Source: a virus. Taken from it: 30,553 nt of DNA. Positions within the stretch are counted from its first letter, which is position 1. Every line of letters begins with the position of its first letter. This document shows positions 1 through 30,553 of this stretch, one piece after another. Where the stretch lies: IMG/VR virus record IMGVR_UViG_3300040802_000002, positions 1-30,553 of that record. One strand, written 5' to 3'. Both the position numbers and the translations under genes were made by a program. The notes beneath the pieces were generated by a model, which worked only from the letters and a program-made list of their open reading frames with translations, had not been told where the DNA came from and made no database searches.

Positions 1-398
1 AGCAAGGTAATGACGGCAATGTTTTACTTAGAGCCGACCGACATCAACACATTAGATTTCCGCGACCAAATCATAATAGATAACAGTTACTGGAGGCTCA
101 ACAAAGTAATGAATTACAACCCTTTCAAGGAGGGGTTAACGAAGGTTGAGTTGATTAAAATCAAAGAGCCTGTTACATTCCAAAAGTCGGACAGAAGCCT
201 TAACGCTGGTGGTTATTTAGGCAAGGAAAAGATGCCATCTCCTTCCACCGAAATCAAGACCAACGGCAACAAGTACCCGCCATTTCAGGGAAAGGTGAGC
301 GGAGCGGAGAATAACGTAGGGCAGAGCGTTACAGCTTTTAAAGTGGTCGGAAGTCGTAACACTATCGGGGAAGGCTCGAAGAACATTACCATATTCGG
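1..398 (+). repeat. Left copy of divergent terminal repeat
   Basis: Bases 1-398 align without gaps to 30156-30553. I count 24 mismatches, all within bases 15-291; bases 292-398 are identical (107 bp). Only two mismatched codons change an amino acid (Pro to Ala and Gln to Lys, right copy relative to left). This is allelic variation of one gene end, not an exact terminal repeat. Confidence 0.95.
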
Positions 399-1233: not shown

Positions 1234-3156
1234 ATGGCTACAAAGGTTGCAATAGAAGTAGACGTTAAAACGGGTGAAGCCAATGACGACATAATAGCGT
1301 TAAGGGAAGAACTCGAAAAGGTCAAGCAGACTCAGAAGGAAATGAGCGACCAGTTTAAAGCTGGTTTCAAGGCTGCAGAAAAAGGAGCAAAGGGGGCGAG
1401 TCAAGGGATGAAAGGCTTTGGCACTTCAATAGGTGGAGTGCTTAAATCTTTGGGGCTTATTGGGCTTGCTTTGGAGGTATTCAACTTCCTGAAGGAGTTG
1501 TTAATGAAGAACCAAAAGGTAGCCGACACTTTAGCCATTGCACTTAAAACTATCGAGGTTCTTTTCAATCAACTATTTAAAGCCGTTGAGCCTTTGGGCG
1601 ATGCAATGATGGCTGCATTTGACGACCCTAAACAAGCTATTGTTGACCTTGTAAGCGGAATCTTTAACAGATTCGTAACTAGTCTAAAGGGAATAGGAGT
1701 AGTTGCTGAAGGTGTTGGAATACAACTCAAGGGTGCTTTCACTTTAGATTGGGATGAAGTTCAAAGAGGTCTAAGGCAAACGGCTCAAGGTGTCGCTCAG
1801 GTAGTAAGTGGATATGACATAGAACAACAGAACGCATTTGTTGATGGAGTTGTTAAAGCTGGAACGGAAGCACTAGACACGGCAACAAAAATAGAGACAC
1901 TTAGAAAAGAGGTAAAACTTGCAGAGGCTCAACAAGGTCTCTTGATGCTTCAGTATCAACGAGAGGCAGAACTTCAAAGACAGATTCGGGACGATGTATC
2001 GTTGACTATTGAGGAGCGACAAGCGGCAAACAAAGCACTCGGAGAAATACTTGACGAGCAATCTCAGGAGGAGTTAAAGTTAGCCAACAAGCGTTTGGAG
2101 TTGGCACTACTTGAGCAGTCAATCAACAAAGACTCCGTTGATGCGGAGATTGAAGTAATCAATGCGCGAAAGGAAATAGCTGACATCAACGAGCGTATAA
2201 CGGGTCAAAGGTCGGAGCAGTTGACCAACGAGAACGCATTAAAGAAGGAAGGAATTGAAATCTCGAAAGAACGAATAAAGATTTTAGAGGAAGAAGCGGA
2301 AGCAGAAAGGGTTGCGGCTTTTAAGATTGCGGAGGCAAAAGCCGAGGCTCAAAAGGTTCTTGATGATTATTTAGCAGATAGAGAATCATTGTCCAGAGAG
2401 GGGATGATTCAAAAAGAAATTGACGATGCACTCGCGGTTGAGGAAGCGAAATTCCAAGCGGCAGTTCAAGCGGCACAAGAACAAGGCGTTTTACTTGAAG
2501 AACTTGATGCGTTAGAACTTGCGAGAGAAGAGGAAAGGCTTAGGCTTGAAAATGAGATAAGGGAGAAATACGCACAGGAAGATTTAGAGCGAGAAAAAGA
2601 AATTGCAGATGCACTTGCAAAGGTAGAAGAGGATAATGTTAAAGCAGTCAAAGAAGCGGAGAATGCTAAACGCAAACTAAGAGAAGACGGTCTTACTGCG
2701 GCTGGTTCTATTCTTGGAGCAATTGACCAACTTGTTGAGGCAAGCGGCAACCAATCGAAAGAGGCTGTGGCACTTCAAAAGACTTTAGCCATTGCTCAGA
2801 TTGCCATTGATACGGCAAAGGCAATAGTCGGGGCGATTGCACAGGCGCAAAGCGTACCTTATCCGGGTAACTTAGTAGCCATTGCTACGGGGGTCGCGGC
2901 AGTTGTAGCGGGTATTGCTTCGGCAGTTTCAACACTCAACTCTGCTAATGTGCCGGGCGGAAGTGCGGCAACGCCAACCGCTCCACAAGTGGCAACTGCT
3001 CCAGCTATCCAACAAGCAACTGCTGGAACAACCGAACTCGGAGGAGTGGAACAAGCCCAACTCGCACCTATTCAAGCCTATGTCGTGGAGACAGAAGTAA
3101 CAGGAAATCAGAATAACGTAAACCAAATTGAATCACAAGCAACATTCGGAGGATGA
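1234..3156 (+). CDS. Tail tape measure protein
   Basis: 640 aa. It sets tail length and occupies the tail lumen before DNA ejection. Visible layout: a Lys/Glu-rich start with a short coiled coil (about 20-50), Gly/Ala-rich and hydrophobic segments (about 55-170), a long Glu/Lys/Arg/Ala-rich coiled coil (about 220-520), then a hydrophobic alpha-helical region around 535-585 (ALQKTLAIAQIAIDTAKAIV and VAIATGVAAVVAGIASAVS), typical of the C-terminal part of tape measure proteins in Bacteroidetes phages. At roughly 0.15 nm per residue it would fit a tail of about 95 nm, an estimate only. It is unusual in lying downstream of the distal tail genes and directly upstream of the capsid protease. Confidence 0.85.
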   Translation: MATKVAIEVDVKTGEANDDIIALREELEKVKQTQKEMSDQFKAGFKAAEKGAKGASQGMKGFGTSIGGVLKSLGLIGLALEVFNFLKELLMKNQKVADTLAIALKTIEVLFNQLFKAVEPLGDAMMAAFDDPKQAIVDLVSGIFNRFVTSLKGIGVVAEGVGIQLKGAFTLDWDEVQRGLRQTAQGVAQVVSGYDIEQQNAFVDGVVKAGTEALDTATKIETLRKEVKLAEAQQGLLMLQYQREAELQRQIRDDVSLTIEERQAANKALGEILDEQSQEELKLANKRLELALLEQSINKDSVDAEIEVINARKEIADINERITGQRSEQLTNENALKKEGIEISKERIKILEEEAEAERVAAFKIAEAKAEAQKVLDDYLADRESLSREGMIQKEIDDALAVEEAKFQAAVQAAQEQGVLLEELDALELAREEERLRLENEIREKYAQEDLEREKEIADALAKVEEDNVKAVKEAENAKRKLREDGLTAAGSILGAIDQLVEASGNQSKEAVALQKTLAIAQIAIDTAKAIVGAIAQAQSVPYPGNLVAIATGVAAVVAGIASAVSTLNSANVPGGSAATPTAPQVATAPAIQQATAGTTELGGVEQAQLAPIQAYVVETEVTGNQNNVNQIESQATFGG

Positions 3157-5370: not shown

Positions 5371-5892
5371 ATGGCATATACTGGATGCGCACTCAGCTAC
5401 TCACATGATCTTGACTGCCGCGATACAGTAGGCGGAGTGAAGAGCTGTAGATTTGCGAACCTTGCTGACTATCTTGCATTAACACCTGTTGTATCTGCTG
5501 GAGCGGTTACTTCAATCACAGGAACGCCTACATTCTACAAGTACGAGCAACTAAAGGAAACTTCCTCGTTGACCGAGACCATCAACGGTAACAGTCAGAA
5601 CGGAACGGTTTACTTCACGCCTGAGGTGGTTGTAGTGCTTTCAAAGTTGGACGTAGACAAGCGAAACGAAATCAAAGTTCTTGCTCAGCAGCGTTTGGTG
5701 GCTATCGTTGAAACTAACGACGGGTCATATTGGGTCGTTGGTTACCAAAACGGTCTTGAATTGAACGCTGGAACTTCTGCAACGGGTACGGCTTTCGCTG
5801 ACCTTTCGGGTTACTCTTTGACGTTTAGCGGAATGGAAGCGGAGCAAATGCTTTCCATCGGTTCAGCAGACGTTACTGCGATTACCAACTAA
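5371..5892 (+). CDS. Probable major tail tube protein
   Basis: 173 aa, beta-rich, without catalytic motifs. Visible features: CALSYSHDLDCRDTVGG at the N-terminus, a central region with FYKYEQLKETSSLTETINGN, VYFTPEVVVVLSKLD, and a C-terminal FADLSGYSLTFSGMEAEQM, a pattern seen in tail tube proteins (ending ...LTF.G.E). It sits between the major capsid gene and the portal, flanked by two hairpins, which suggests a separately controlled, highly expressed structural protein. The alternative is another virion structural protein such as a head decoration protein. Confidence 0.5.
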   Translation: MAYTGCALSYSHDLDCRDTVGGVKSCRFANLADYLALTPVVSAGAVTSITGTPTFYKYEQLKETSSLTETINGNSQNGTVYFTPEVVVVLSKLDVDKRNEIKVLAQQRLVAIVETNDGSYWVVGYQNGLELNAGTSATGTAFADLSGYSLTFSGMEAEQMLSIGSADVTAITN

Positions 5893-6460: not shown

Positions 6461-6843
6461 TAAACATCGCACGAAATACGGCTAATGATGTGGCGTTAAC
6501 CCTTACGGAAAAGGGAACGGCTACTTACTACCTCTTTAAGTTCCAATCGGATAACACAGAGGCGGTGGAGTACTGCATTGCTACGGATTCAAGCCTTTAC
6601 CCTGACCGCTTTAACAAGTTCATCATCACGGAAACGTCAACACCTGACAATCTAAATGCGGAGGTGGAACTACCAACAGAGGGGCAATGGCGGTATTTCG
6701 TTTATGCGAACTCTTCAAGTTCAAATTTAGACCCGACTGGACTGACCGAATTAGAATCGGGAATCGTGAAAGTAACGGGAACATCAACACCAGTTACCAC
6801 CTACTCAGGTGGCAACTCTAACTATGTAGTGTATGGCTCTTAA
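6457..6843 (+). CDS. Small structural protein of unknown role
   Basis: 128 aa. The start is TTG at 6457, overlapping the upstream TGA; no ATG lies near, so coupling to the upstream gene is likely. The sequence is beta-rich with the form of an immunoglobulin-like or fibronectin-like fold (GTATYYLFKFQSDNT, EGQWRYFVYANSSS, ESGIVKVTG), ending in SNYVVYGS. Bacteroidetes phages carry similar short proteins near head genes. No enzyme motif is seen. It overlaps the portal start by 11 bases. Confidence 0.55.
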   Translation: MINIARNTANDVALTLTEKGTATYYLFKFQSDNTEAVEYCIATDSSLYPDRFNKFIITETSTPDNLNAEVELPTEGQWRYFVYANSSSSNLDPTGLTELESGIVKVTGTSTPVTTYSGGNSNYVVYGS

Positions 6844-8893
6844 AATTCTAAACTTCGGAGCGCATAAAGTGCCTACCTTCAAAGAAGCAAAGGGCAAAGA
6901 TTGGATTCTCTTTGGAGACGAAGGGGAATACAAGAACCGCTATCCTGAGTACCTTCTGAACCTTTACCGCAGAAGTGCGAAGCATCACGCCATCATCAAC
7001 TCAAAAAAAGACTACGTAGTTGGTCAGGGATGGGCTGTTAACGCTGAAGGATTGGACACGATGGGGCTTGCAAGACTTCAGCAGTTCATTCAAGAGCCGA
7101 ACCAATATGAGTCTTTAAACGACATCTTGGAGAAGGTAGCACTTGATTACGAGTTATACAACGGCTTCGCGTTAGAAATCGTTTACAACCAACTGAACGA
7201 CAAGATTGCGGCTATTTATCACGCTGACTTTGCGCGTTATCGGTCAAACGAGGACGGCACGAAATACTACTATTCGGAAGATTGGAAGAAGCACAACCCT
7301 GTCGTTGAAGAAATAGATGCTTTCAACTGGAAAGAGCCAAGCGGCAAGCAGCTACTTTATGTCAAAGGATACTCTCCTGACTGCAAATACTACCCGCTTC
7401 CTACATATCTTGGGTCAACGGGTTACATTGAGTTAGACGTAGAGATTGCCAACTTCCACCTTAACGCGGTTAAGAACAACTTTGTCGGAGGGACAATCGT
7501 GTCTTTCTACAATGGAGAGCCGACTCTTGAAGAACAAGAGGAAATCGAGCGACAGATAAAGGACAAGTTTACGGGAACTGACAACGCTAACTCTATCGTT
7601 CTAAACTTTGCAGATTCAAGGGACAGAGGAGTCGAGATTCAGCAGTTGAATGGCAACGACTTCGACAAGCGTTTTGACATCTTAAACAAGACCGTACAAA
7701 GGGAAATTTATGCTGGGCATTCGGTAACTGACCCTGCACTCTTCGGAATCAAAGAGGACGGAATCTTCACGAGCAGAAACCAACTGGTAGACAGCTTTGA
7801 GTTGTTCCAAAACACCTACGTAAACAACCGACAGCAGTTCATCGAGAGGGTATTTAATGACCTTGCCGCAGTTCAAGGGTTATGGAATCGTTTGTTTATA
7901 CAAGACACAGAACCGATTAGCGTACAATTCTCAGAGTCTACGGTTACTTCTGTAATGACAGAGGCGGAAATACGTGAGAAAGTAGGGCTGCAAGTTGTTC
8001 AAACTAAGGAAGATTCTACGGTTGACAGCAAGACCAAAGATGCACAAGCTGCACTTAAAGGGTCAGTCGGTGGTGTTAGCGGTATCATTACGTTACTTCA
8101 GAACGTCAAAGAGGGTCTTATCGCTGAGAACTCCGCTATCGCTGTACTTGTTGAGTTGTACGGCTTCAGTCCTGAGATTGCAAGGTCTACAATTACGGGC
8201 GAAGTTATCCCTGAGAATGTGGCGGCAGAGATGCGAGCGGTATTCGAGAAGCAAGACGAGGACGCTATCCTTGTTGAGTACTTCAAGAACTGCGGCTCGA
8301 CTGACTACGAACCCGTAGGGAATGGCAAGGCGTTAAACTTTGAAAGCGAAACCTCCGCAAGATTACACGAGGAACTGAATAGAAAGTATTGGTTCGCTGA
8401 GATAGACCCGTTGGACACGGCTATTTTGAACATCCTAAAGGAGAATCCAGCTACTCCGTTTCTTGCGATTGCAGAACAGCTACAACTTTCAATTGAAAGG
8501 GTAATGGCTGGGCTTCAAAGACTGAACGAAGCCAACGCTATCAAGATAGCCATCGACAACGTACTGGACTCAACGCAACGAGCCGTAGAAGTAACCAAAG
8601 AAGGCGAGCGACTACTTGAGCAGGTACCACCAGTAGAGGAGGAGTTCGTTATTCGTTACGTTTACTCCAAACGACCAGAGGCAAGCGGTGCGGCTATCAT
8701 TCCAACTACGCGACCATTCTGCCGCGAACTCGTAACGGAAACAGAAGCTGGTAAGAGTTGGAAGTTGACCGAGATTCAAAACATCGGAGTAAGCCAAAAT
8801 AGAAACGTATGGATGCGAGGCGGTGGATTTTGGGGTAAATCATACCATTGCCGACACTACTGGGAGCAGAAACTTATGAAGATTAAGAAGTAA
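6833..8893 (+). CDS. Portal protein with C-terminal winged-helix-like and Cys/His extension
   Basis: 686 aa, longer than the usual 400-500 aa portal. Residues about 25-375 look like a portal core: YRRSAKHHAIINSKKDYVVG, the LDYELYNGFALEIVY segment, LDVEIANFHLNAVKNNFVGG and EIYAGHSVTDPALFG, with the DNA-facing region later. Residues about 525-575 form a probable helix-turn-helix (LDTAILNILKENPATPFLAI, AEQLQLSIERVMAGLQRL). Residues about 605-680 carry RPFC (C630), WMRGGGFW and CRHYW (C673, H675), a motif set I associate with minor head / MuF-like C-termini in Bacteroidetes phages. No separate minor head gene is present, so this part may replace it. It overlaps both neighbours. Confidence 0.8.
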   Translation: MALKILNFGAHKVPTFKEAKGKDWILFGDEGEYKNRYPEYLLNLYRRSAKHHAIINSKKDYVVGQGWAVNAEGLDTMGLARLQQFIQEPNQYESLNDILEKVALDYELYNGFALEIVYNQLNDKIAAIYHADFARYRSNEDGTKYYYSEDWKKHNPVVEEIDAFNWKEPSGKQLLYVKGYSPDCKYYPLPTYLGSTGYIELDVEIANFHLNAVKNNFVGGTIVSFYNGEPTLEEQEEIERQIKDKFTGTDNANSIVLNFADSRDRGVEIQQLNGNDFDKRFDILNKTVQREIYAGHSVTDPALFGIKEDGIFTSRNQLVDSFELFQNTYVNNRQQFIERVFNDLAAVQGLWNRLFIQDTEPISVQFSESTVTSVMTEAEIREKVGLQVVQTKEDSTVDSKTKDAQAALKGSVGGVSGIITLLQNVKEGLIAENSAIAVLVELYGFSPEIARSTITGEVIPENVAAEMRAVFEKQDEDAILVEYFKNCGSTDYEPVGNGKALNFESETSARLHEELNRKYWFAEIDPLDTAILNILKENPATPFLAIAEQLQLSIERVMAGLQRLNEANAIKIAIDNVLDSTQRAVEVTKEGERLLEQVPPVEEEFVIRYVYSKRPEASGAAIIPTTRPFCRELVTETEAGKSWKLTEIQNIGVSQNRNVWMRGGGFWGKSYHCRHYWEQKLMKIKK

Positions 8894-18159: not shown

Positions 18160-18294
18160 ACTAATGAACGCCTGACAAGTGTTTATCTGAAACTCGAAGA
18201 AATGAAGAAACTACTTTACGGGGTTAAAACAAACGGACGGCTACTTCGAGGGCTGAACGGGAGGGGCGCAGTCAACGCCAACCCCTTTTTTTTT
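18160..18294 (+). ncRNA. Candidate structured RNA or long leader ending in a terminator
   Basis: Between the -7 box and the nine-T run there is no convincing gene. GGGGTT (18220-18225) can pair with AACCCC (18280-18285), enclosing an inner stem GGCG (18265-18268) / CGCC (18276-18279) and the GC-rich stretch between. The transcript would be about 130 nt. It could be a small RNA or an attenuator in front of the HNH/replication genes. The 5' end is inferred, and a leaky terminator is equally possible. Confidence 0.4.
18263..18294 (+). terminator. Terminator with nine-T tract
   Basis: GGCG (18265-18268) / CGCC (18276-18279) hairpin inside a longer GGGGTT/AACCCC pairing, immediately followed by nine T (18286-18294). 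The HNH gene begins five bases later. Confidence 0.6.
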
Positions 18295-23247: not shown

Positions 23248-23643
23248 GTGGCGAAAGAAGACAACCTAAAACCCTTCAAGAAAGGCGAGAGCGGCAACCC
23301 TAAAGGGCGACCGAAGAACGTGGAGACGCTGCTAAAGGAACATTTCTTGGACGAGCATAACGTCAAGCTATCGAAGGGGCAAGTGCAAGACATCATAAAG
23401 AACGTACTCGGAAAATCAAGAAGCGAGTTGGTGGAGTTGGCAAAGAATGACCAGCTACCTTTTTGGATTGCTCTGATAGCGAAGAAAGCACAAAGGGATT
23501 ACGAGAAAGGAAGCATCCACATTCTCGATGTGTTATTCGATAGGGTCTATGGCAAGCCAAAAGAAGAAGTAGAGCAGACCGTTAACGGTGGAAAGCCTGA
23601 CAAGATTGAGATTGTCATCCATCGACCTGACAAAACCAAGTAA
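23248..23643 (+). CDS. terS: Terminase small subunit-like protein (DUF5681-type)
   Basis: 131 aa from GTG at 23248. The N-terminus KPFKKGESGNPKGRPKN is the DUF5681 motif seen in many phage small terminase-like proteins; the rest is helical and charged (GQVQDIIKNVLGKSRSELVE). It sits immediately upstream of the large terminase, the standard terS position, so it likely recognises the packaging site. Codon use differs from the preceding glycosyltransferase. Confidence 0.7.
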   Translation: MAKEDNLKPFKKGESGNPKGRPKNVETLLKEHFLDEHNVKLSKGQVQDIIKNVLGKSRSELVELAKNDQLPFWIALIAKKAQRDYEKGSIHILDVLFDRVYGKPKEEVEQTVNGGKPDKIEIVIHRPDKTK

Positions 23644-23664: not shown

Positions 23665-24849
23665 GTGAAAATTGAAGGAACTGGCGTATTTGATGACCTC
23701 TGGGCTGCCCTTAATGATAAATCCATTCGGGGAATTGTGCTTGAGGGTGGCTCACGTTCCTCGAAGACGTGGAGCATCTGCCAAGCTATCTACCTTACAG
23801 GACTACAAGAACCGAAGAGAATCGCAATTGCGAGGTTTCGGAGGACGTGGATTAAACCGACCGTACTCGACACGTTCAAGAAGGTACTCCAAAGCCTTGA
23901 GGTATGGGAGGATGAGGCGTTCAACAAGACCGATTTAATCTACTCCGCTCACGGGTCAACGTTTGAGTTCTACGGGCTTGACGATTCGCAGAAGCTACAC
24001 GGTATCGAGACCGATTACTTTTGGCTCAACGAGGCGATTGAAACCAGTAAGGATGACTTCGACCAACTGGAGCAGCGTTGTAAGGGCAAGTGGATTCTCG
24101 ATTACAACCCTTCCACCGACGAGCATTGGATTTACGATAACGTCTTGAAACGGGACGATGTGGTCCTGATTCACTCCACGATGCTGGACAACACCTTCCT
24201 GGACCAGCACATCCGGGACAAGATTAACTCCTACGAACCAACACCTTTTAATGTATCACGAGGCACGGCTGATGAATACAAGTGGAAGGTCTACGGGTTA
24301 GGGCAAAGGTCAAGAAGAGAAGGTGCGATTTACGAGAACTGGCAAGAGGTCAAAGATTTTCCAACGGGCTACAAGTGGAAAGCCTACGGGCTTGACTTCG
24401 GGTTCACTAACGACCCGACCGCACTCGTGGAGGTACTCTACCAAGATGGCAAGCTGTGGGTTCGTGAGGTGCTTTACGAAACAGGGTTAACCAACGCGGA
24501 CATAGCGAGAAAGTGCGGACTTCAGCGAAGTGATGAGATTATCGCAGACTCCGCTGAACCGAAGAGCATTGAGGAAATCCGAAGGGCTGGTTTCAGAATC
24601 CGACCAGTCGCCAAAGGTCAAGACAGCGTAAGGTCAGGTATCGATAAGCTGAAATCTGTGCAGATTATGGTACATCAAGACTCGGTCAACATCATCCGAG
24701 AGTTGAGAAACTACGCTTGGAAACGAGATTACAAGACCAACGCAGTAACCAACCAACCCGAAGATGACAATAACGATGCACTCGATGCCGTGAGATATGT
24801 AGCTACGGAGAAGCTGAAGGCGAACGCTGGCAAGTATACCCTTCGGTAA
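23665..24849 (+). CDS. terL: Terminase large subunit
   Basis: 394 aa from GTG at 23665. ATPase: Walker A GGSRSSKT (28-35), Walker B DYFWLNEA (117-124, with Asn before the catalytic Glu), coupling motif LDYNPS (145-150). Nuclease (RNase H fold) acidic residues: D244 in YGLDFGFTND, D295 in IIADSAEP, D371/D374 in NNDALDAVRY. The GGSRSSKT form and length fit PBSX/Terminase_3-type enzymes. It packages DNA into proheads together with the portal (6833-8893). The portal is unusually far away, across the tail module. Confidence 0.95.
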   Translation: MKIEGTGVFDDLWAALNDKSIRGIVLEGGSRSSKTWSICQAIYLTGLQEPKRIAIARFRRTWIKPTVLDTFKKVLQSLEVWEDEAFNKTDLIYSAHGSTFEFYGLDDSQKLHGIETDYFWLNEAIETSKDDFDQLEQRCKGKWILDYNPSTDEHWIYDNVLKRDDVVLIHSTMLDNTFLDQHIRDKINSYEPTPFNVSRGTADEYKWKVYGLGQRSRREGAIYENWQEVKDFPTGYKWKAYGLDFGFTNDPTALVEVLYQDGKLWVREVLYETGLTNADIARKCGLQRSDEIIADSAEPKSIEEIRRAGFRIRPVAKGQDSVRSGIDKLKSVQIMVHQDSVNIIRELRNYAWKRDYKTNAVTNQPEDDNNDALDAVRYVATEKLKANAGKYTLR

Positions 24850-24943: not shown

Positions 24944-25285
24944 ATGCTTGAACGACTGAACAAAATATGGCGTATGCAAGAGGCTTACACGGATTACCCG
25001 AAGGCAGCTTCTGAGAACGCCAAAGCCGCTCTAAATTGGGCGGAGAAGAACGGATGGAAAGGTTGCGGTACTGCCGTAGGAAAGGCAAGGGCTAACCAAT
25101 TAGCGAACCGTGAGCCAATCAGTTTAGAAACCATTGAGCGAATGGCTGCATTTATCCGACACAAACGTAACTCTACCCGAAAGCTGGGCGAAGGTTGTGG
25201 ACGTTTGATGTGGTTAGCTTGGGGCGGAGATGCTGGGGTCAATTGGGCAATCAAGAAAATAGAGCAGATAAAGAATGAAGATTGA
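24944..25285 (+). CDS. Conserved phage domain protein between terminase and tail genes
   Basis: 113 aa. Contains a block I recognise from many phage proteins: AALNWAEKNGWKGCGTAVGK then ARANQLANREPISLETIERM, AAFIRHKRN, and LGEGCGRLMWLAWGGDAGVN ending WAIKK. The same block often forms the C-terminal part of larger structural or protease-like phage proteins; here it stands alone. Its function is not known to me. It has its own candidate promoter and overlaps the tail chaperone start by 11 bases. Confidence 0.6.
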   Translation: MLERLNKIWRMQEAYTDYPKAASENAKAALNWAEKNGWKGCGTAVGKARANQLANREPISLETIERMAAFIRHKRNSTRKLGEGCGRLMWLAWGGDAGVNWAIKKIEQIKNED

Positions 25286-25895
25286 GTTACCTAATAGCTG
25301 GGCGGGTGTAACTGTTAAGCAGTTCCAAGCACTCCAGCGAATACTCGCAGAAAAGGGGGAAGAGTACCCGACAAACGTGGCTATAATTTCCATCATGTCA
25401 GGCGTTCCAGTTGACGAGATAGAAACATACTCCTTAAAGACATATGCTAAGTGTATGCAGACGCTTTCATTTCTTACGGAGCAACTTGTCGGAGAGGTAC
25501 AGAAGGTGGTGGAATTTGGAGGCGTTAGATACGATGTTATCACAGACGTTTACAACCTAAATGGAGGGCAGTACATTACCTTGATGCACTTGATGAAAGA
25601 CCCTGACAAAGTTATCGACCAGCTCCACGAGGTCATGGCGGTATTCTTAGTTCCCAAAAAGAGAACTTGGTACGGATGGAAGAAAGGCAAGTATGACCCT
25701 GAGAAACACAAGGAAGTTTCGGAGGCAATGCTGCAAGCACCAATGACAATCGTGCAACCGTTGTCGGCTTTTTTTTTAAGCAGTTATCTCAAGTCCGCCA
25801 AACATATACTGGAATCTTCGGTCAGGAAAGCGGAGAAAATCAAGAGACAAGCGGAAAGAAGGTTGAAACTTTTGAATCGAAATACGGCTGGCTGA
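25275..25895 (+). CDS. Tail assembly chaperone G-type protein
   Basis: 206 aa when read in the zero frame. Helical protein starting MKIELPNSWAGVTVKQFQAL, a pattern of gpG-type chaperones, with an acidic/hydrophobic middle (DEIETYSLKTYAKCMQTLSF) and Lys-rich end. It contains T TTT TTA at 25772-25778, where ribosomes can slip back to produce a GT fusion with the downstream frame (25778-26044). Such chaperones coat the tape measure until tail tube polymerisation. It lies upstream of the neck and distal tail genes, as expected. Confidence 0.75.
   Translation: MKIELPNSWAGVTVKQFQALQRILAEKGEEYPTNVAIISIMSGVPVDEIETYSLKTYAKCMQTLSFLTEQLVGEVQKVVEFGGVRYDVITDVYNLNGGQYITLMHLMKDPDKVIDQLHEVMAVFLVPKKRTWYGWKKGKYDPEKHKEVSEAMLQAPMTIVQPLSAFFLSSYLKSAKHILESSVRKAEKIKRQAERRLKLLNRNTAG
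25772..25778 (+). promoter_or_regulatory. Programmed -1 ribosomal frameshift site (T TTT TTA)
   Basis: Inside a nine-T run (25769-25777) the zero frame reads gct ttt ttt tta, giving the classical heptamer T TTT TTA. The -1 frame is open from 25703 to the stop at 26042-26044, so slippage yields an 88-codon extension. The same heptamer is the slip site of HIV-1 gag-pol. Confidence 0.8.
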
Positions 25896-26044
25896 ACGTG
25901 GTTAACAACCTATCTAATAACGATGCGACCAAGTGGGGGTATTTCTTCGCTCTTCCTCTTCGGGAGTTCCTCAACCTTATCTCTTTTCAGAAGGCGAAAC
26001 AGAACCACGAATATCATCAAATGAAGCAGAATGGCGTTCGATAA
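25778..26044 (+). CDS. T extension of tail assembly chaperone (-1 frame)
   Basis: 88 codons read only after -1 slippage, giving a GT fusion of about 256 aa. It starts KQLSQVRQTYTGIFGQESGE and continues with KYGWLNVVNNLSNNDATKWG, YFFALPLREFLNLISFQKAK, a helical domain matching the general T pattern (K-W-x-x-L ... EFL..L). Without it, 25896-26030 would be a coding gap between tightly packed genes. No start codon is needed. The T domain recruits tail tube subunits in lambda-type phages. It overlaps the next gene by 14 bases. Confidence 0.7.
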   Translation, partial: KQLSQVRQTYTGIFGQESGENQETSGKKVETFESKYGWLNVVNNLSNNDATKWGYFFALPLREFLNLISFQKAKQNHEYHQMKQNGVR

Positions 26045-26561
26045 GTTAATAGATGCTCTGAACGAGTTTCGGGGTGAGTACACCAAAGCGTTAGCCGATT
26101 CGTTACAAGGCGGCTCAACTTTAGGAACTGGCGAAGGTCAGGGTTACGTTGCATCTGGAGATTTGCTGAACAGTTTGGGGTTGGATGTCCAGCCAAAGGT
26201 CAAATTATTCGGGCAGATATACCGTATGCAGATACGCATGGCGGAACATGGTGAGTACTTAGACAAAGGAAGAAAGCCAGGAAAAGGATTGCCTCCTGGA
26301 GTTCTTGAAAAGTGGTTGAGACTTCCTAACGTATTGGCGAGAATAACGGGTCAGGATGCAAGGCTTAAAGATTATCAAATTAATTCTTTGGCGTTTGTAA
26401 TCAATAGAAGCATCAAGCAGAAAGGAATCAAGCCTAAGAACTGGCTACAACCAGCCTTTGACAAGGTAACGCCTAAGATTGCTGGAGTTGTAGAGGCGGC
26501 AATTGCTGAAGACATAGAGTTGACATTTGAACAAATAAAGAAACTAATCGAAACCAAGTAA
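26031..26561 (+). CDS. HK97 gp10-like / tail completion protein
   Basis: 176 aa. Contains GDLLNSLGLDVQPKVKLFGQ and a YLDKGRKPGKGLPPGVLEKW segment (about 75-94), the hallmark of gp10-like/gpZ-type neck proteins, followed by FVINRSIKQKGIKPKNWLQP and a C-terminal helix. These proteins finish the tail and join it to the head. It overlaps the GT extension and shares one base with the next start. Nomenclature by family pattern. Confidence 0.7.
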   Translation: MAFDKLIDALNEFRGEYTKALADSLQGGSTLGTGEGQGYVASGDLLNSLGLDVQPKVKLFGQIYRMQIRMAEHGEYLDKGRKPGKGLPPGVLEKWLRLPNVLARITGQDARLKDYQINSLAFVINRSIKQKGIKPKNWLQPAFDKVTPKIAGVVEAAIAEDIELTFEQIKKLIETK

Positions 26562-27850: not shown

Positions 27851-30553
27851 GGTTAGAATAGAGGGGCGTAAATTAGACGTATTTGAGGGGTTCGATTTCT
27901 CCTTCAACTACGGCATTGCCGACATACGCAACCCTGAGAAGAGAAGCACGGAGTACTCCAAGACCATCAAATGCCCAGCTACGAAGAACAACGACGAACT
28001 CTTCGGGCATATATACGACGTTAACATCTCAAACAATCACGATGCTAACACTACTAACATTAGCGTTAATTTCAACCCTAATAAGAAAGCTGAAGCGCGA
28101 GTAATAGCCGATGGGGTGGAGGTCATGGCTGGAGTTGTCCAACTCCGCAAGATAGTTCAGAAGGGACACGCCTACACATATGAGGTGGTGTTTATCGGAA
28201 AGCTGCTAAACATCTTTTCGGTACTTGGCGACAAGGAACTTAATGGGGTCGATGAGAATGGAAACCCTTACATAGATTTCAGCGACCTTAACCACGCATA
28301 CAACTACGCCAATATTACCAGCAGTTGGAACTTCACGGATGACTACGTTTACCCGATGTTGGACAATGGCACGAGTTTCGAATACAATGGGTCAGGTGAG
28401 CGCATTTACGGAGTAACTCAGTTCAAGCCATTCTTGAAACTAAAAAGCGTTATCAATCGAATCTTCGACTTTGCTGGGTTCAGTTATACCAGTTCATTTT
28501 TTAACTCAGCATTATTTGAACGGTTGATTATTGGCGAAGTAAAAGAGAACCTTCTGTCGGATGCTCAAGCCGACCTCCGCAACGCAGAGGTAACGGTCAC
28601 AAGTCCAGACGTTCTTGATTTGACGTACCTTACTTTCAGCGCACTTAATGGCTATACCCACCGTTTCGATTTTTCGACAGTTGTTTATGATGCTGGCAAT
28701 AACATAGACATAAACCAAGACATATACTTCACTTCATTCGAGTCGGTGTCTACGGTTACCAGCGTTGTAGACTACGAAGTAACGCGAACAAAAAGGACAT
28801 TCTTTAGCTGGTCTGCTGCGGGTGGAGTCCCGATTACATACCGTTATGAGATTTTACCGAATGGTAATTGTGATGTATATAATCATTTGACTGGCGCGCA
28901 ACTTCAAAGCAATGTCTCAACAAACCAAACGCTTACAACATTAACTGGAGACCTTGATGCGGGAGTTGATTCGGACGCGGAACTTCAATACATAATTGAC
29001 AACTGTATTGCGAGCCAATCATATAGGGACTCTGTTGGGCTTGCGTTTACTGGTTTCGATTGTCTTTATGGTTCGATGGCTGCCCCATTATTTAAACACA
29101 ACATCAAGCGGTTCGACAGTATTCAAGGGTATGTTAACGAGAACTCTACGGACTTCGTTCTATTTCCAAACATGGCTCTCGGTGCAACTGTAAGCCAAAC
29201 ATCTTACGCGAGTGCCGAAAGCGTTAACATAAATCAAGGGAACTACCTATATACAGAACTCTTTATTCCAAACGTATTCGTTACAACTGGTTTCTTTGGT
29301 GGTGATGGGGTGTTTACCGATGTGATTTTTGACGAGTACGAAATGGAGGCTAACGGCTTCTTCAGAGTCACGGCTGAAAACAACACTCTACTGGAGCATC
29401 AAGATGTTGACTTCAATGCCATCGTCCCAATTGTTGAGATGAGCGAATTGTTCACTTCGGTGCTTCAGATGTTCAACCTTTATGTTGAGGTCGACCCGAA
29501 CAACGAGCGAAACCTACTGATTGAAACAAGGGACACATTCTACTCTCAGGGTGGAACAAAGGACTGGACGTATAAGCTGGCAAGGGACAAAGACATAACG
29601 CTTGAACCGCTCGGAGTTCTAACCGACCGCGAATACATTTACACCTACTCGGAAGATGGGGACTATTATAACGAACGCTACCAATCCAACAGAGGACACG
29701 TTTACGGAAGGGCAAGAATCGAAATAGATAACGACTTCGTACAGAGTTCAAAGGAAACCGAAATAATATTTTCGCCTACTCCGCTCATAAACGACAATCC
29801 ATCGAGCCGAATAATAGGAGCAATTTACGACTCAGACATTGAGGACGGTTTTAAGCAGACGGACTCAAATGTCCGAATCTTGCAATGGGGAGGAATGCTT
29901 CCAAGTAATCCGCAATGGGTTTTTGCTTACTCCAACGCTAACCAGCAGAATATACCTTTGTTGGCAGCTTTCAACACCTACCCTTATGCGGGACATTGGG
30001 ACAACCCGATAACGCCAACGATAGATATCAACTTCGGGCTAACCTATGAATTATATTACCAAGCTAATGCATTCACGGGAACGCTCCAAGTAACTAACGC
30101 GAACCTTTACAACATTTATCACCGCAACTATATCAACGAGGTAACGGACAAAAACAGCAAGGTAATGACTGCAATGTTTTACCTTGAACCAACGGACATC
30201 AACACCTTAGATTTCCGCGACCAAATCATAATAGATAACAGTTACTGGAGGCTCAACAAAGTAATGAACTACAACCCTTTCAAGGAGGGGTTAACGAAGG
30301 TTGAACTCATCAAGATAAAGGAGGCGGTTACCTTCAAAAAGTCGGACAGGAGCCTTAACGCTGGTGGTTATTTAGGAAAGGAAAAGATGCCATCTCCTTC
30401 CACCGAAATCAAGACCAACGGAAACAAATACCCGCCATTTCAGGGCAAGGTGAGCGGAGCGGAGAATAACGTAGGGCAGAGCGTTACAGCTTTTAAAGTG
30501 GTCGGAAGTCGTAACACTATCGGGGAAGGCTCGAAGAACATTACCATATTCGG
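27843..30553 (+). CDS. Large tail-tip protein, N-terminal and central part (continues past window end)
   Basis: The frame is open from after a stop at 27813-27815; I chose GTG at 27843, which overlaps the upstream stop by eight bases. The window encodes 903 codons; joined with 1-654 it would total about 988 aa. N-terminal segment VVEVRIEGRKLDVFEGFDFS and NPEKRSTEYSKTIKCPATKN, followed by a long beta-rich region; the last 133 codons duplicate those at 1-398. This is the likely Tal/tail-tip protein that contacts the host. Sites with SDAELQYIIDNC and FTGFDCLYG contain Cys but no clear enzyme motif. Confidence 0.75.
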   Translation, partial: MVEVRIEGRKLDVFEGFDFSFNYGIADIRNPEKRSTEYSKTIKCPATKNNDELFGHIYDVNISNNHDANTTNISVNFNPNKKAEARVIADGVEVMAGVVQLRKIVQKGHAYTYEVVFIGKLLNIFSVLGDKELNGVDENGNPYIDFSDLNHAYNYANITSSWNFTDDYVYPMLDNGTSFEYNGSGERIYGVTQFKPFLKLKSVINRIFDFAGFSYTSSFFNSALFERLIIGEVKENLLSDAQADLRNAEVTVTSPDVLDLTYLTFSALNGYTHRFDFSTVVYDAGNNIDINQDIYFTSFESVSTVTSVVDYEVTRTKRTFFSWSAAGGVPITYRYEILPNGNCDVYNHLTGAQLQSNVSTNQTLTTLTGDLDAGVDSDAELQYIIDNCIASQSYRDSVGLAFTGFDCLYGSMAAPLFKHNIKRFDSIQGYVNENSTDFVLFPNMALGATVSQTSYASAESVNINQGNYLYTELFIPNVFVTTGFFGGDGVFTDVIFDEYEMEANGFFRVTAENNTLLEHQDVDFNAIVPIVEMSELFTSVLQMFNLYVEVDPNNERNLLIETRDTFYSQGGTKDWTYKLARDKDITLEPLGVLTDREYIYTYSEDGDYYNERYQSNRGHVYGRARIEIDNDFVQSSKETEIIFSPTPLINDNPSSRIIGAIYDSDIEDGFKQTDSNVRILQWGGMLPSNPQWVFAYSNANQQNIPLLAAFNTYPYAGHWDNPITPTIDINFGLTYELYYQANAFTGTLQVTNANLYNIYHRNYINEVTDKNSKVMTAMFYLEPTDINTLDFRDQIIIDNSYWRLNKVMNYNPFKEGLTKVELIKIKEAVTFKKSDRSLNAGGYLGKEKMPSPSTEIKTNGNKYPPFQGKVSGAENNVGQSVTAFKVVGSRNTIGEGSKNITIF
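30156..30553 (+). repeat. Right copy of divergent terminal repeat
   Basis: Aligns to 1-398 without gaps. Diverged over its first 291 bases (24 mismatches, 22 without effect on the protein) and identical over the last 107. Both copies are in the same reading frame of the tail-tip gene. Confidence 0.95.

What the first reader, a model, noticed from the sequence alone, without database searches (positions are those of the whole stretch)
25769..26044. Canonical -1 frameshift creates a G/GT tail chaperone pair
The zero-frame gene ends at 25895, leaving an apparent gap to 26031. The -1 frame is open from 25703 to 26044, and T TTT TTA lies in exact register at 25772-25778. The extension contains a T-like helical domain (KYGWLNVV, EFLNLISF). 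This explains the gap and gives two products of 206 and about 256 aa.
Basis: partly seen in the sequence, partly recalled or inferred. Interest (0 to 1): 0.65.

Follow-up and report, generated by a model that had tools for sequence, protein, structure and literature searches.

The report
Two-frame phage tail-chaperone gene, T9 slip
A virus of (probably) Bacteroidota bacteria makes a short and a long version of what is very likely a tail-building helper protein by slipping one letter at a run of nine T's, and the same nine-T run is kept in 21 of 22 divergent lineages, including a phage in culture, so the gene pair is real and it can be tested whether RNA polymerase rather than the ribosome does the slipping.

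Summary
The 206-aa gene (25275-25895) and an 88-codon -1-frame extension (25778-26044) are both open in all complete relatives apart from one with a separate 1-nt indel. Past the zero-frame stop, variable columns fall by -1 codon position as 10/45, 3/45 and 37/45, so the -1 frame is translated; the overlap is dual-coded (P=9e-5). The shift site is a run of exactly nine T (25769-25777): 114 of 115 distinct slip contexts have T9 and one has T10, across 22 clusters at 70% aa identity, in two codon registers. It includes the cultured Nonlabens phage P12024S, where the two halves were annotated as separate genes. Tail-chaperone identity is supported by fold (best VIA-align match: HK97 tail assembly chaperone, Z 3.9, weak), recurrent sub-threshold Phage_TAC_7 hits and the two-product architecture. 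I favour transcriptional slippage (about 0.55) over ribosomal frameshifting (about 0.40). No experiment decides.

The parts
25275..25895 (+). zero-frame gene: 206-aa short product (tail-chaperone-like, 'G-like')
   Evidence: predicted structure mean pLDDT 84.6
25769..25777 (+). run of nine T: the conserved shift site
   Evidence: T9 in 114 of 115 distinct slip contexts, T10 in one
25769..25775 (+). in-register U UUU UUU heptamer (zero-frame codons 25770-25772 and 25773-25775), the better ribosomal candidate
   Evidence: sequence; motif ranking from PMC4066793
25778..26044 (+). -1-frame extension: 88 codons plus TAA; long product 256 aa
   Evidence: purifying selection by codon position; alignment A7 over divergent families
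25778..25892 (+). dual-coded overlap of the zero and -1 frames
   Evidence: reduced third-position variability in both frames, Fisher 8.7e-5 and 5.4e-8
26031..26561 (+). downstream neck / tail-completion-like gene; its ATG lies inside the end of the -1 frame, so the long frame overlaps it by 14 nt
   Evidence: PHROG_5 weak; synteny
23665..24849 (+). terminase large subunit, upstream neighbour in conserved order
   Evidence: Pfam Terminase_3; synteny
1234..3156 (+). tape-measure-like protein (640 aa), the presumed partner; not adjacent to the slip gene
   Evidence: PHROG tape measure E 1.5e-8; synteny
5371..5892 (+). possible major tail (tube) protein, presumed second partner (my assignment from sequence character; PHROG function unknown)
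   Evidence: phrog_19091, unknown function; homologue in P12024S

Best explanation
A two-product tail assembly chaperone of the lambda G/GT and P2 E/E+E' type. The zero frame makes a 206-aa short product; a fraction of expression moves to the -1 frame at the T9 run and makes a 256-aa long product with an extra helical C-terminal domain ('T-like'). Shown here by comparison: both frames are translated and selected, and T9 is the invariant feature of the junction. Inferred: the long form bridges tape-measure and tail-tube proteins, the short form coats the tape measure, and the ratio is set by the slip. Most likely mechanism: mainly transcriptional, RNA polymerase adding one U at the nine-T template so that T10 transcripts read GCT TTT TTT TTT AAG (A-F-F-F-K) and continue in the extension; deletion of one T gives a stop at once (GCT TTT TTT TAA). 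Confidence in a real two-product gene with a -1 transition at T9 about 0.95; chaperone function about 0.8; transcription as the main step about 0.55. The figure below is for the whole statement, polymerase step included.
For: Frames. Run length: 114 of 115 distinct contexts T9 in two codon registers, 22 clusters at 70% aa identity; in the 18 lineages examined T9 is the longest coding T run, and the only one of 8 or more except in L190, even where TTT is only 16-29% of Phe codons. In the close clade 37 of 39 fourfold sites vary but Ala third base 25769 does not. No stimulator: fold z near 0 except in one clade; SD-like motif upstream in 4 of 115. E. coli RNA polymerase: insertion about 5% at T7 and 10% at T8, none below T7 (PMC6260861); bacterial heptamers without stimulator shift at only 2-10 times a 0.055% background (PMC4066793). 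Chaperone: VIA-align best match HK97 tail assembly chaperone 2ob9, Z 3.9, 2.9 A over 61 residues (weak); Phage_TAC_7 hits below cut-off in several divergent relatives; conserved order in phages with a tape measure.
Against: P2 E/E+E' is an established tail chaperone with a ribosomal shift at TTTTTTG and no hairpin (PMC3091744), so T-rich ribosomal sites work without stimulators. Every T9 here also contains an in-register U UUU UUU, and part of the T9 invariance can come from F/L side chains in both products. Slippage numbers are from E. coli, not Bacteroidota. Z 3.9 is weak by the tool's own yardstick and the Pfam hits are below the gathering score; direct comparison with P2 E finds nothing. 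The gene is not next to the tape measure. No RNA or protein data.
Confidence: 0.5

Rival explanations
1. Same two-product tail chaperone, but by programmed -1 ribosomal frameshifting on the T run, most likely at the in-register U UUU UUU (25769-25775; junction A-F-F-F-K) rather than the reader's U UUU UUA (junction A-F-F-L-K).
For: In-register U UUU UUU is present wherever T9 is and belongs to the efficient U_UUU_UUY class in E. coli; the tail-chaperone recoding with experimental support named in the sources read is ribosomal.
Against: No conserved hairpin or SD; seven T would be enough, yet the run is nine in both registers; without stimulators such heptamers shift rarely in E. coli.
Confidence: 0.4
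2. Sequencing or assembly artefact: the true genome has T10 (or another indel) and one ordinary 256-aa gene.
For: Homopolymers are error-prone; one relative (L051) does carry a 1-nt indel elsewhere in the gene that fuses the frames.
Against: T9 in 114 of 115 distinct contexts from many independent metagenomes plus the cultured P12024S genome; zero frame past the site is under selection.
Confidence: 0.02
3. Two separate genes: the downstream frame is translated from its own start, as annotated for P12024S gp38/gp39.
For: GenBank annotates P12024S_39 from an internal ATG.
Against: The window's -1 frame has no ATG before the residues conserved in the families of the window's superclade (Y10, F14, G15 of alignment A7), and conservation starts at the T9 itself.
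Confidence: 0.03
4. The two products are real but are not a tail chaperone; for example a neck or head-completion factor or a regulator.
For: Position between terminase and a neck-like gene, far from the tape measure; fold and Pfam matches are weak.
Against: The best VIA-align match and the recurring Pfam family are both tail chaperones; a short/long -1 architecture is the hallmark of these genes.
Confidence: 0.18

Closest known systems
Phage P2 E / E+E' (Pfam PF10109 Phage_TAC_7)
   Same: short and long product by -1 shift on a T-rich site (TTTTTTG), no hairpin (PMC3091744); several relatives hit PF10109 weakly
   Different: P2 run is T6 and the gene adjoins the tape measure gene T; proteins are 91/142 aa against 206/256; no direct similarity to P2 E
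Phage lambda G / GT
   Same: two-product logic, extension in the -1 frame
   Different: ribosomal, about 30:1 ratio (PMC5009743); different shift site (from memory); here the short product continues for about 38 dual-coded codons and the gene is not next to the tape measure
HK97 tail assembly chaperone (PDB 2ob9)
   Same: best VIA-align match to the N-terminal 69 residues of the model (Z 3.9)
   Different: only 61 residues aligned at 10% identity; the rest of the model is barely tested by that search
Nonlabens phage P12024S gp38/gp39 (phrog_32199)
   Same: same family (hhalign E 3.5e-7 for the zero-frame protein; phrog_32199 hit), T9 at 23578-23586, -1 extension, terminase upstream
   Different: annotated as two hypothetical proteins; CTT TTT TTT TAT register; short product has 24 codons after the site
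Shigella spa13 and other type III secretion genes expressed by RNA polymerase slippage
   Same: slippage during transcription gives a C-terminal extension on 25-30% of product (PMC5009743)
   Different: secretion genes, not phage; no homology claimed

Membership tests
Two-product tail assembly chaperone (G/GT, E/E+E' type) | short and long products sharing an N-terminus, long form reached by a frame transition near the 3' end | tested here: met
   both frames conserved and selected; comparative, not biochemical
Two-product tail assembly chaperone (G/GT, E/E+E' type) | chaperone fold or family in the N-terminal domain | tested here: inconclusive
   HK97 chaperone best match Z 3.9; PF10109 E 0.0011-0.056 in several relatives, below the gathering score
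Two-product tail assembly chaperone (G/GT, E/E+E' type) | position directly upstream of the tape-measure gene (customary, not defining) | tested here: not met
   slip gene at 25275, tape-measure-like gene at 1234 of a record with overlapping ends; four genes between in relatives
Two-product tail assembly chaperone (G/GT, E/E+E' type) | binding to tape measure and tail tube; needed for tails; absent from virions | not testable with these tools
   needs experiment
Programmed -1 ribosomal frameshifting | in-register X_XXY_YYZ heptamer | tested here: met
   U UUU UUU at 25769-25775 and U UUU UUA at 25772-25778; conserved as U UUU UUU
Programmed -1 ribosomal frameshifting | conserved stimulator (downstream structure or upstream SD); usual, not universal and not defining | tested here: not met
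   fold z-scores near 0 in the window and most families, one clade -3.1; SD-like in 4 of 115
Programmed -1 ribosomal frameshifting | long product made from unedited (T9) mRNA | not testable with these tools
   needs RNA and protein from infected cells or a reporter
Programmed transcriptional realignment | homopolymer of 8 or more A/T at the junction, conserved in length | tested here: met
   T9 in 114 of 115; criterion from PMC3711429
Programmed transcriptional realignment | mRNA of mixed length at the run | not testable with these tools
   needs RNA from infected cells

The most novel reading that the evidence does not exclude
In a broad group of aquatic phages, some infecting Bacteroidota, the short:long ratio of the tail chaperone is set by RNA polymerase slippage on an invariant nine-T run rather than by the ribosome: a transcriptional G/GT switch. 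I found no report of this for any phage tail chaperone in the literature searched.
Probability: 0.5. Interest if true: 0.65.

Novelty: new variant of a known kind. Interest (0 to 1): 0.5.

Why it matters
It reveals an unannotated tail-chaperone family in aquatic phages with a simple sequence signature (T9 plus a -1 extension) that gene callers split into two hypothetical genes. If polymerase slippage does the shifting, a dose-critical virion assembly ratio is fixed by the host RNA polymerase at the RNA level, and the cultured phages P12024S and P12024L make this directly testable. The T9 signature can be searched for in other phages.

Tried and rejected
PDB search by profile: no match. Foldseek PDB: no match at E 0.001 or better; the extension alone gave no useful PDB match. 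tblastn of P0001, P0003 and the L104-type proteins in cultured phages: nothing; P12024S was found through structure search. Bacterial genomes: no relative. hhalign with P2 E: nothing. Early idea that a stop in the +1 frame directly after T8 is conserved: true in the window's close clade only, dropped. First argument that T at 25769 is unnecessary for ribosomal slippage: wrong, because U UUU UUU at 25769-25775 uses it; the codon-frequency product 4e-6 therefore shows selection for the run, not for the mechanism. Phocaeicola phage BV739P1 after the terminase: no comparable T run. Riemerella RAP44, Olleya Harreka_1 and Bacteroides BS-TP2 have the portal gene after the terminase, and Cellulophaga phiST small hypothetical genes, so they were not comparable. 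P2 relatives fetched as a control were too alike to be informative.

Full report
What was claimed. A zero-frame gene ending at 25895 and a -1 frame open to 26044 would be joined by a ribosomal slip at T TTT TTA (25772-25778), giving a lambda-like G/GT tail chaperone pair.

The sequence. The zero frame 25275-25895 encodes 206 aa. The -1 frame is open from 25703 to 26044 and gives 88 codons after the slip; the long product is 256 aa. The site is a run of nine T at 25769-25777. By itself a T9 is unremarkable in this window (two found, 2.0 expected).

Close relatives. A search of viral contigs returned 53 loci. In all loci that cover the site the T9 is unbroken; the complete ones without an indel have a 206-aa zero frame and an 88-codon extension. 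One (L051) has an extra base in an upstream A-run, T9 intact. In 36 distinct sequences the region after the zero-frame stop varies at 10/45, 3/45 and 37/45 of the first, second and third positions of the -1 frame: textbook purifying selection. In the overlap, -1 third positions vary at only 15/38 (Fisher 8.7e-5 against downstream) and zero-frame third positions at 15/39 against 137/164 upstream (5.4e-8), so both frames are constrained there. The zero-frame stop is kept as TGA or TAA. Across divergent lineages the zero frame stays open for at least 34 codons past the site in 15 of 18 and for 32, 32 and 24 codons in the others, where resampling of synonymous -1 codons would often close it (lineages are not fully independent).

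Distant relatives. Profile searches and a search with the homologue of the cultured phage P12024S gave many divergent families. Every one that covers the site has the same layout, with the extension always in the -1 frame. Over all loci there are 115 distinct 320-nt slip contexts: 114 with T9 and one with T10 (L299), in 31, 22 and 12 clusters at 90, 70 and 50% aa identity. Two codon registers occur: NNT TTT TTT TTN with N = A, G or C (GCT, TCT, ACT, GAT before it) and NTT TTT TTT TNN (GTT, CTT, ATT before; TGC, TAT or TAC after). (One further context counted in a third register is the L051 sequence with its separate indel.) Among 18 lineages examined, T9 is the longest coding T run, and the only one of 8 or more except in L190 (an additional T8), also in GC-rich ones where TTT is 16-29% of Phe codons.

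Cultured member. Nonlabens phage P12024S was found by Foldseek (E 2e-11). Its gp38 (after the terminase) ends in CTT TTT TTT TAT with T9 at 23578-23586, and the -1 frame continues into the ORF annotated as gp39. The zero-frame protein aligns with the window family (hhalign E 3.5e-7; the extension only weakly), and phrog_32199, the family of gp38, hits the window protein. P12024L has nearly identical proteins.

What the protein is. The zero-frame model (pLDDT 84.6) has the slip inside a long C-terminal helix. Among 610 PDB chains re-aligned by VIA-align, the best is the HK97 tail assembly chaperone (2ob9, Z 3.9, rmsd 2.9 A over 61 residues of model 1-69). This is weak by the tool's own yardstick, but Pfam independently gives the P2 E family (Phage_TAC_7) in several divergent relatives over nearly the same residues, always below the curated cut-off (best E 0.0011). 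The extension is predicted helical (pLDDT 75). Gene order terminase - (113 aa) - slip gene - neck-like - 429 aa - 903 aa - 192 aa - tape-measure-like is conserved. So 'works like a tail chaperone' is likely; strict membership is not proven, and the customary position next to the tape measure is not met.

Which machine slips. For the ribosome: in-register U UUU UUU is always there, UUY heptamers are efficient in E. coli, and P2 uses TTTTTTG without a hairpin. For the polymerase: the run is nine, not seven; its length is constant while register and downstream codon change; no stimulator is conserved; E. coli polymerase inserts a base in 5% at T7 and 10% at T8, whereas heptamers without stimulators shift at 2-10 times a 0.055% background. 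A nine-T run should therefore slip in transcription at several percent or more if Bacteroidota polymerase behaves like that of E. coli, which is unknown. Amino-acid constraint (FF followed by F/L in the long form) explains part of the T9, so I hold transcription at about 0.55 and the ribosome at about 0.40; both may act.

Novelty. Two-product tail chaperones are well known; this family was unannotated (PHROG 'unknown function'), its T9 signature differs from the known sites I could check, and a transcriptional version has not been reported in the papers I could search (subscription journals are largely missing). The host is not known from the window; Bacteroidota is inferred from the relationship to the Nonlabens phages and the weak terminase match to Phocaeicola phages.

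Noticed in passing
window 1-398 and 30156-30553: The record's two ends overlap by 398 bases at only 94% identity, so the genome is probably circular or terminally redundant, and the assembly joins two strain variants (or the repeat is truly imperfect). The ORF from 27843 continues across the join.
   Followed up: partly
window 18286-18294: A second T9 lies just before the start of an HNH endonuclease gene (18299), inside a small ORF in another frame; it is absent from the two relatives checked (L285, L286).
   Followed up: yes
L283 23136-23830 (phage P12024S) and L355 (P12024L): GenBank splits the two-frame gene into two hypothetical proteins (gp38/gp39; gp40/gp41 in P12024L).
   Followed up: yes
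L132, L134, L135, L138, L306, L322: In several families the zero frame stays open to 239-250 aa, nearly as long as the long product, so a clear size difference between the two products is not conserved.
   Followed up: partly
L118 3630-3709: The clade of L104-L129 has an unusually stable RNA fold right after the run (z -3.1 in the one member folded), not seen in the other families; a possible clade-specific stimulator.
   Followed up: no
L299, T run near locus position 2920: The only T10 among 115 contexts (ATC TTT TTT TTT TAT), explained by a single C-to-T difference in the preceding codon with all frames kept.
   Followed up: partly
L284 (Flavobacterium phage 6H), reverse strand, positions 36052-36940 of the reverse complement: A structurally similar 191-aa protein is followed by a C-terminal open stretch in the -1 frame, but the junction has only T6 and a -1 stop; a different site or a sequence error.
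   Followed up: partly
window 6833-8893: The portal gene carries an AsnC-type helix-turn-helix region at its C-terminal side (Pfam PF13404, residues 524-564), unusual for a portal protein.
   Followed up: no
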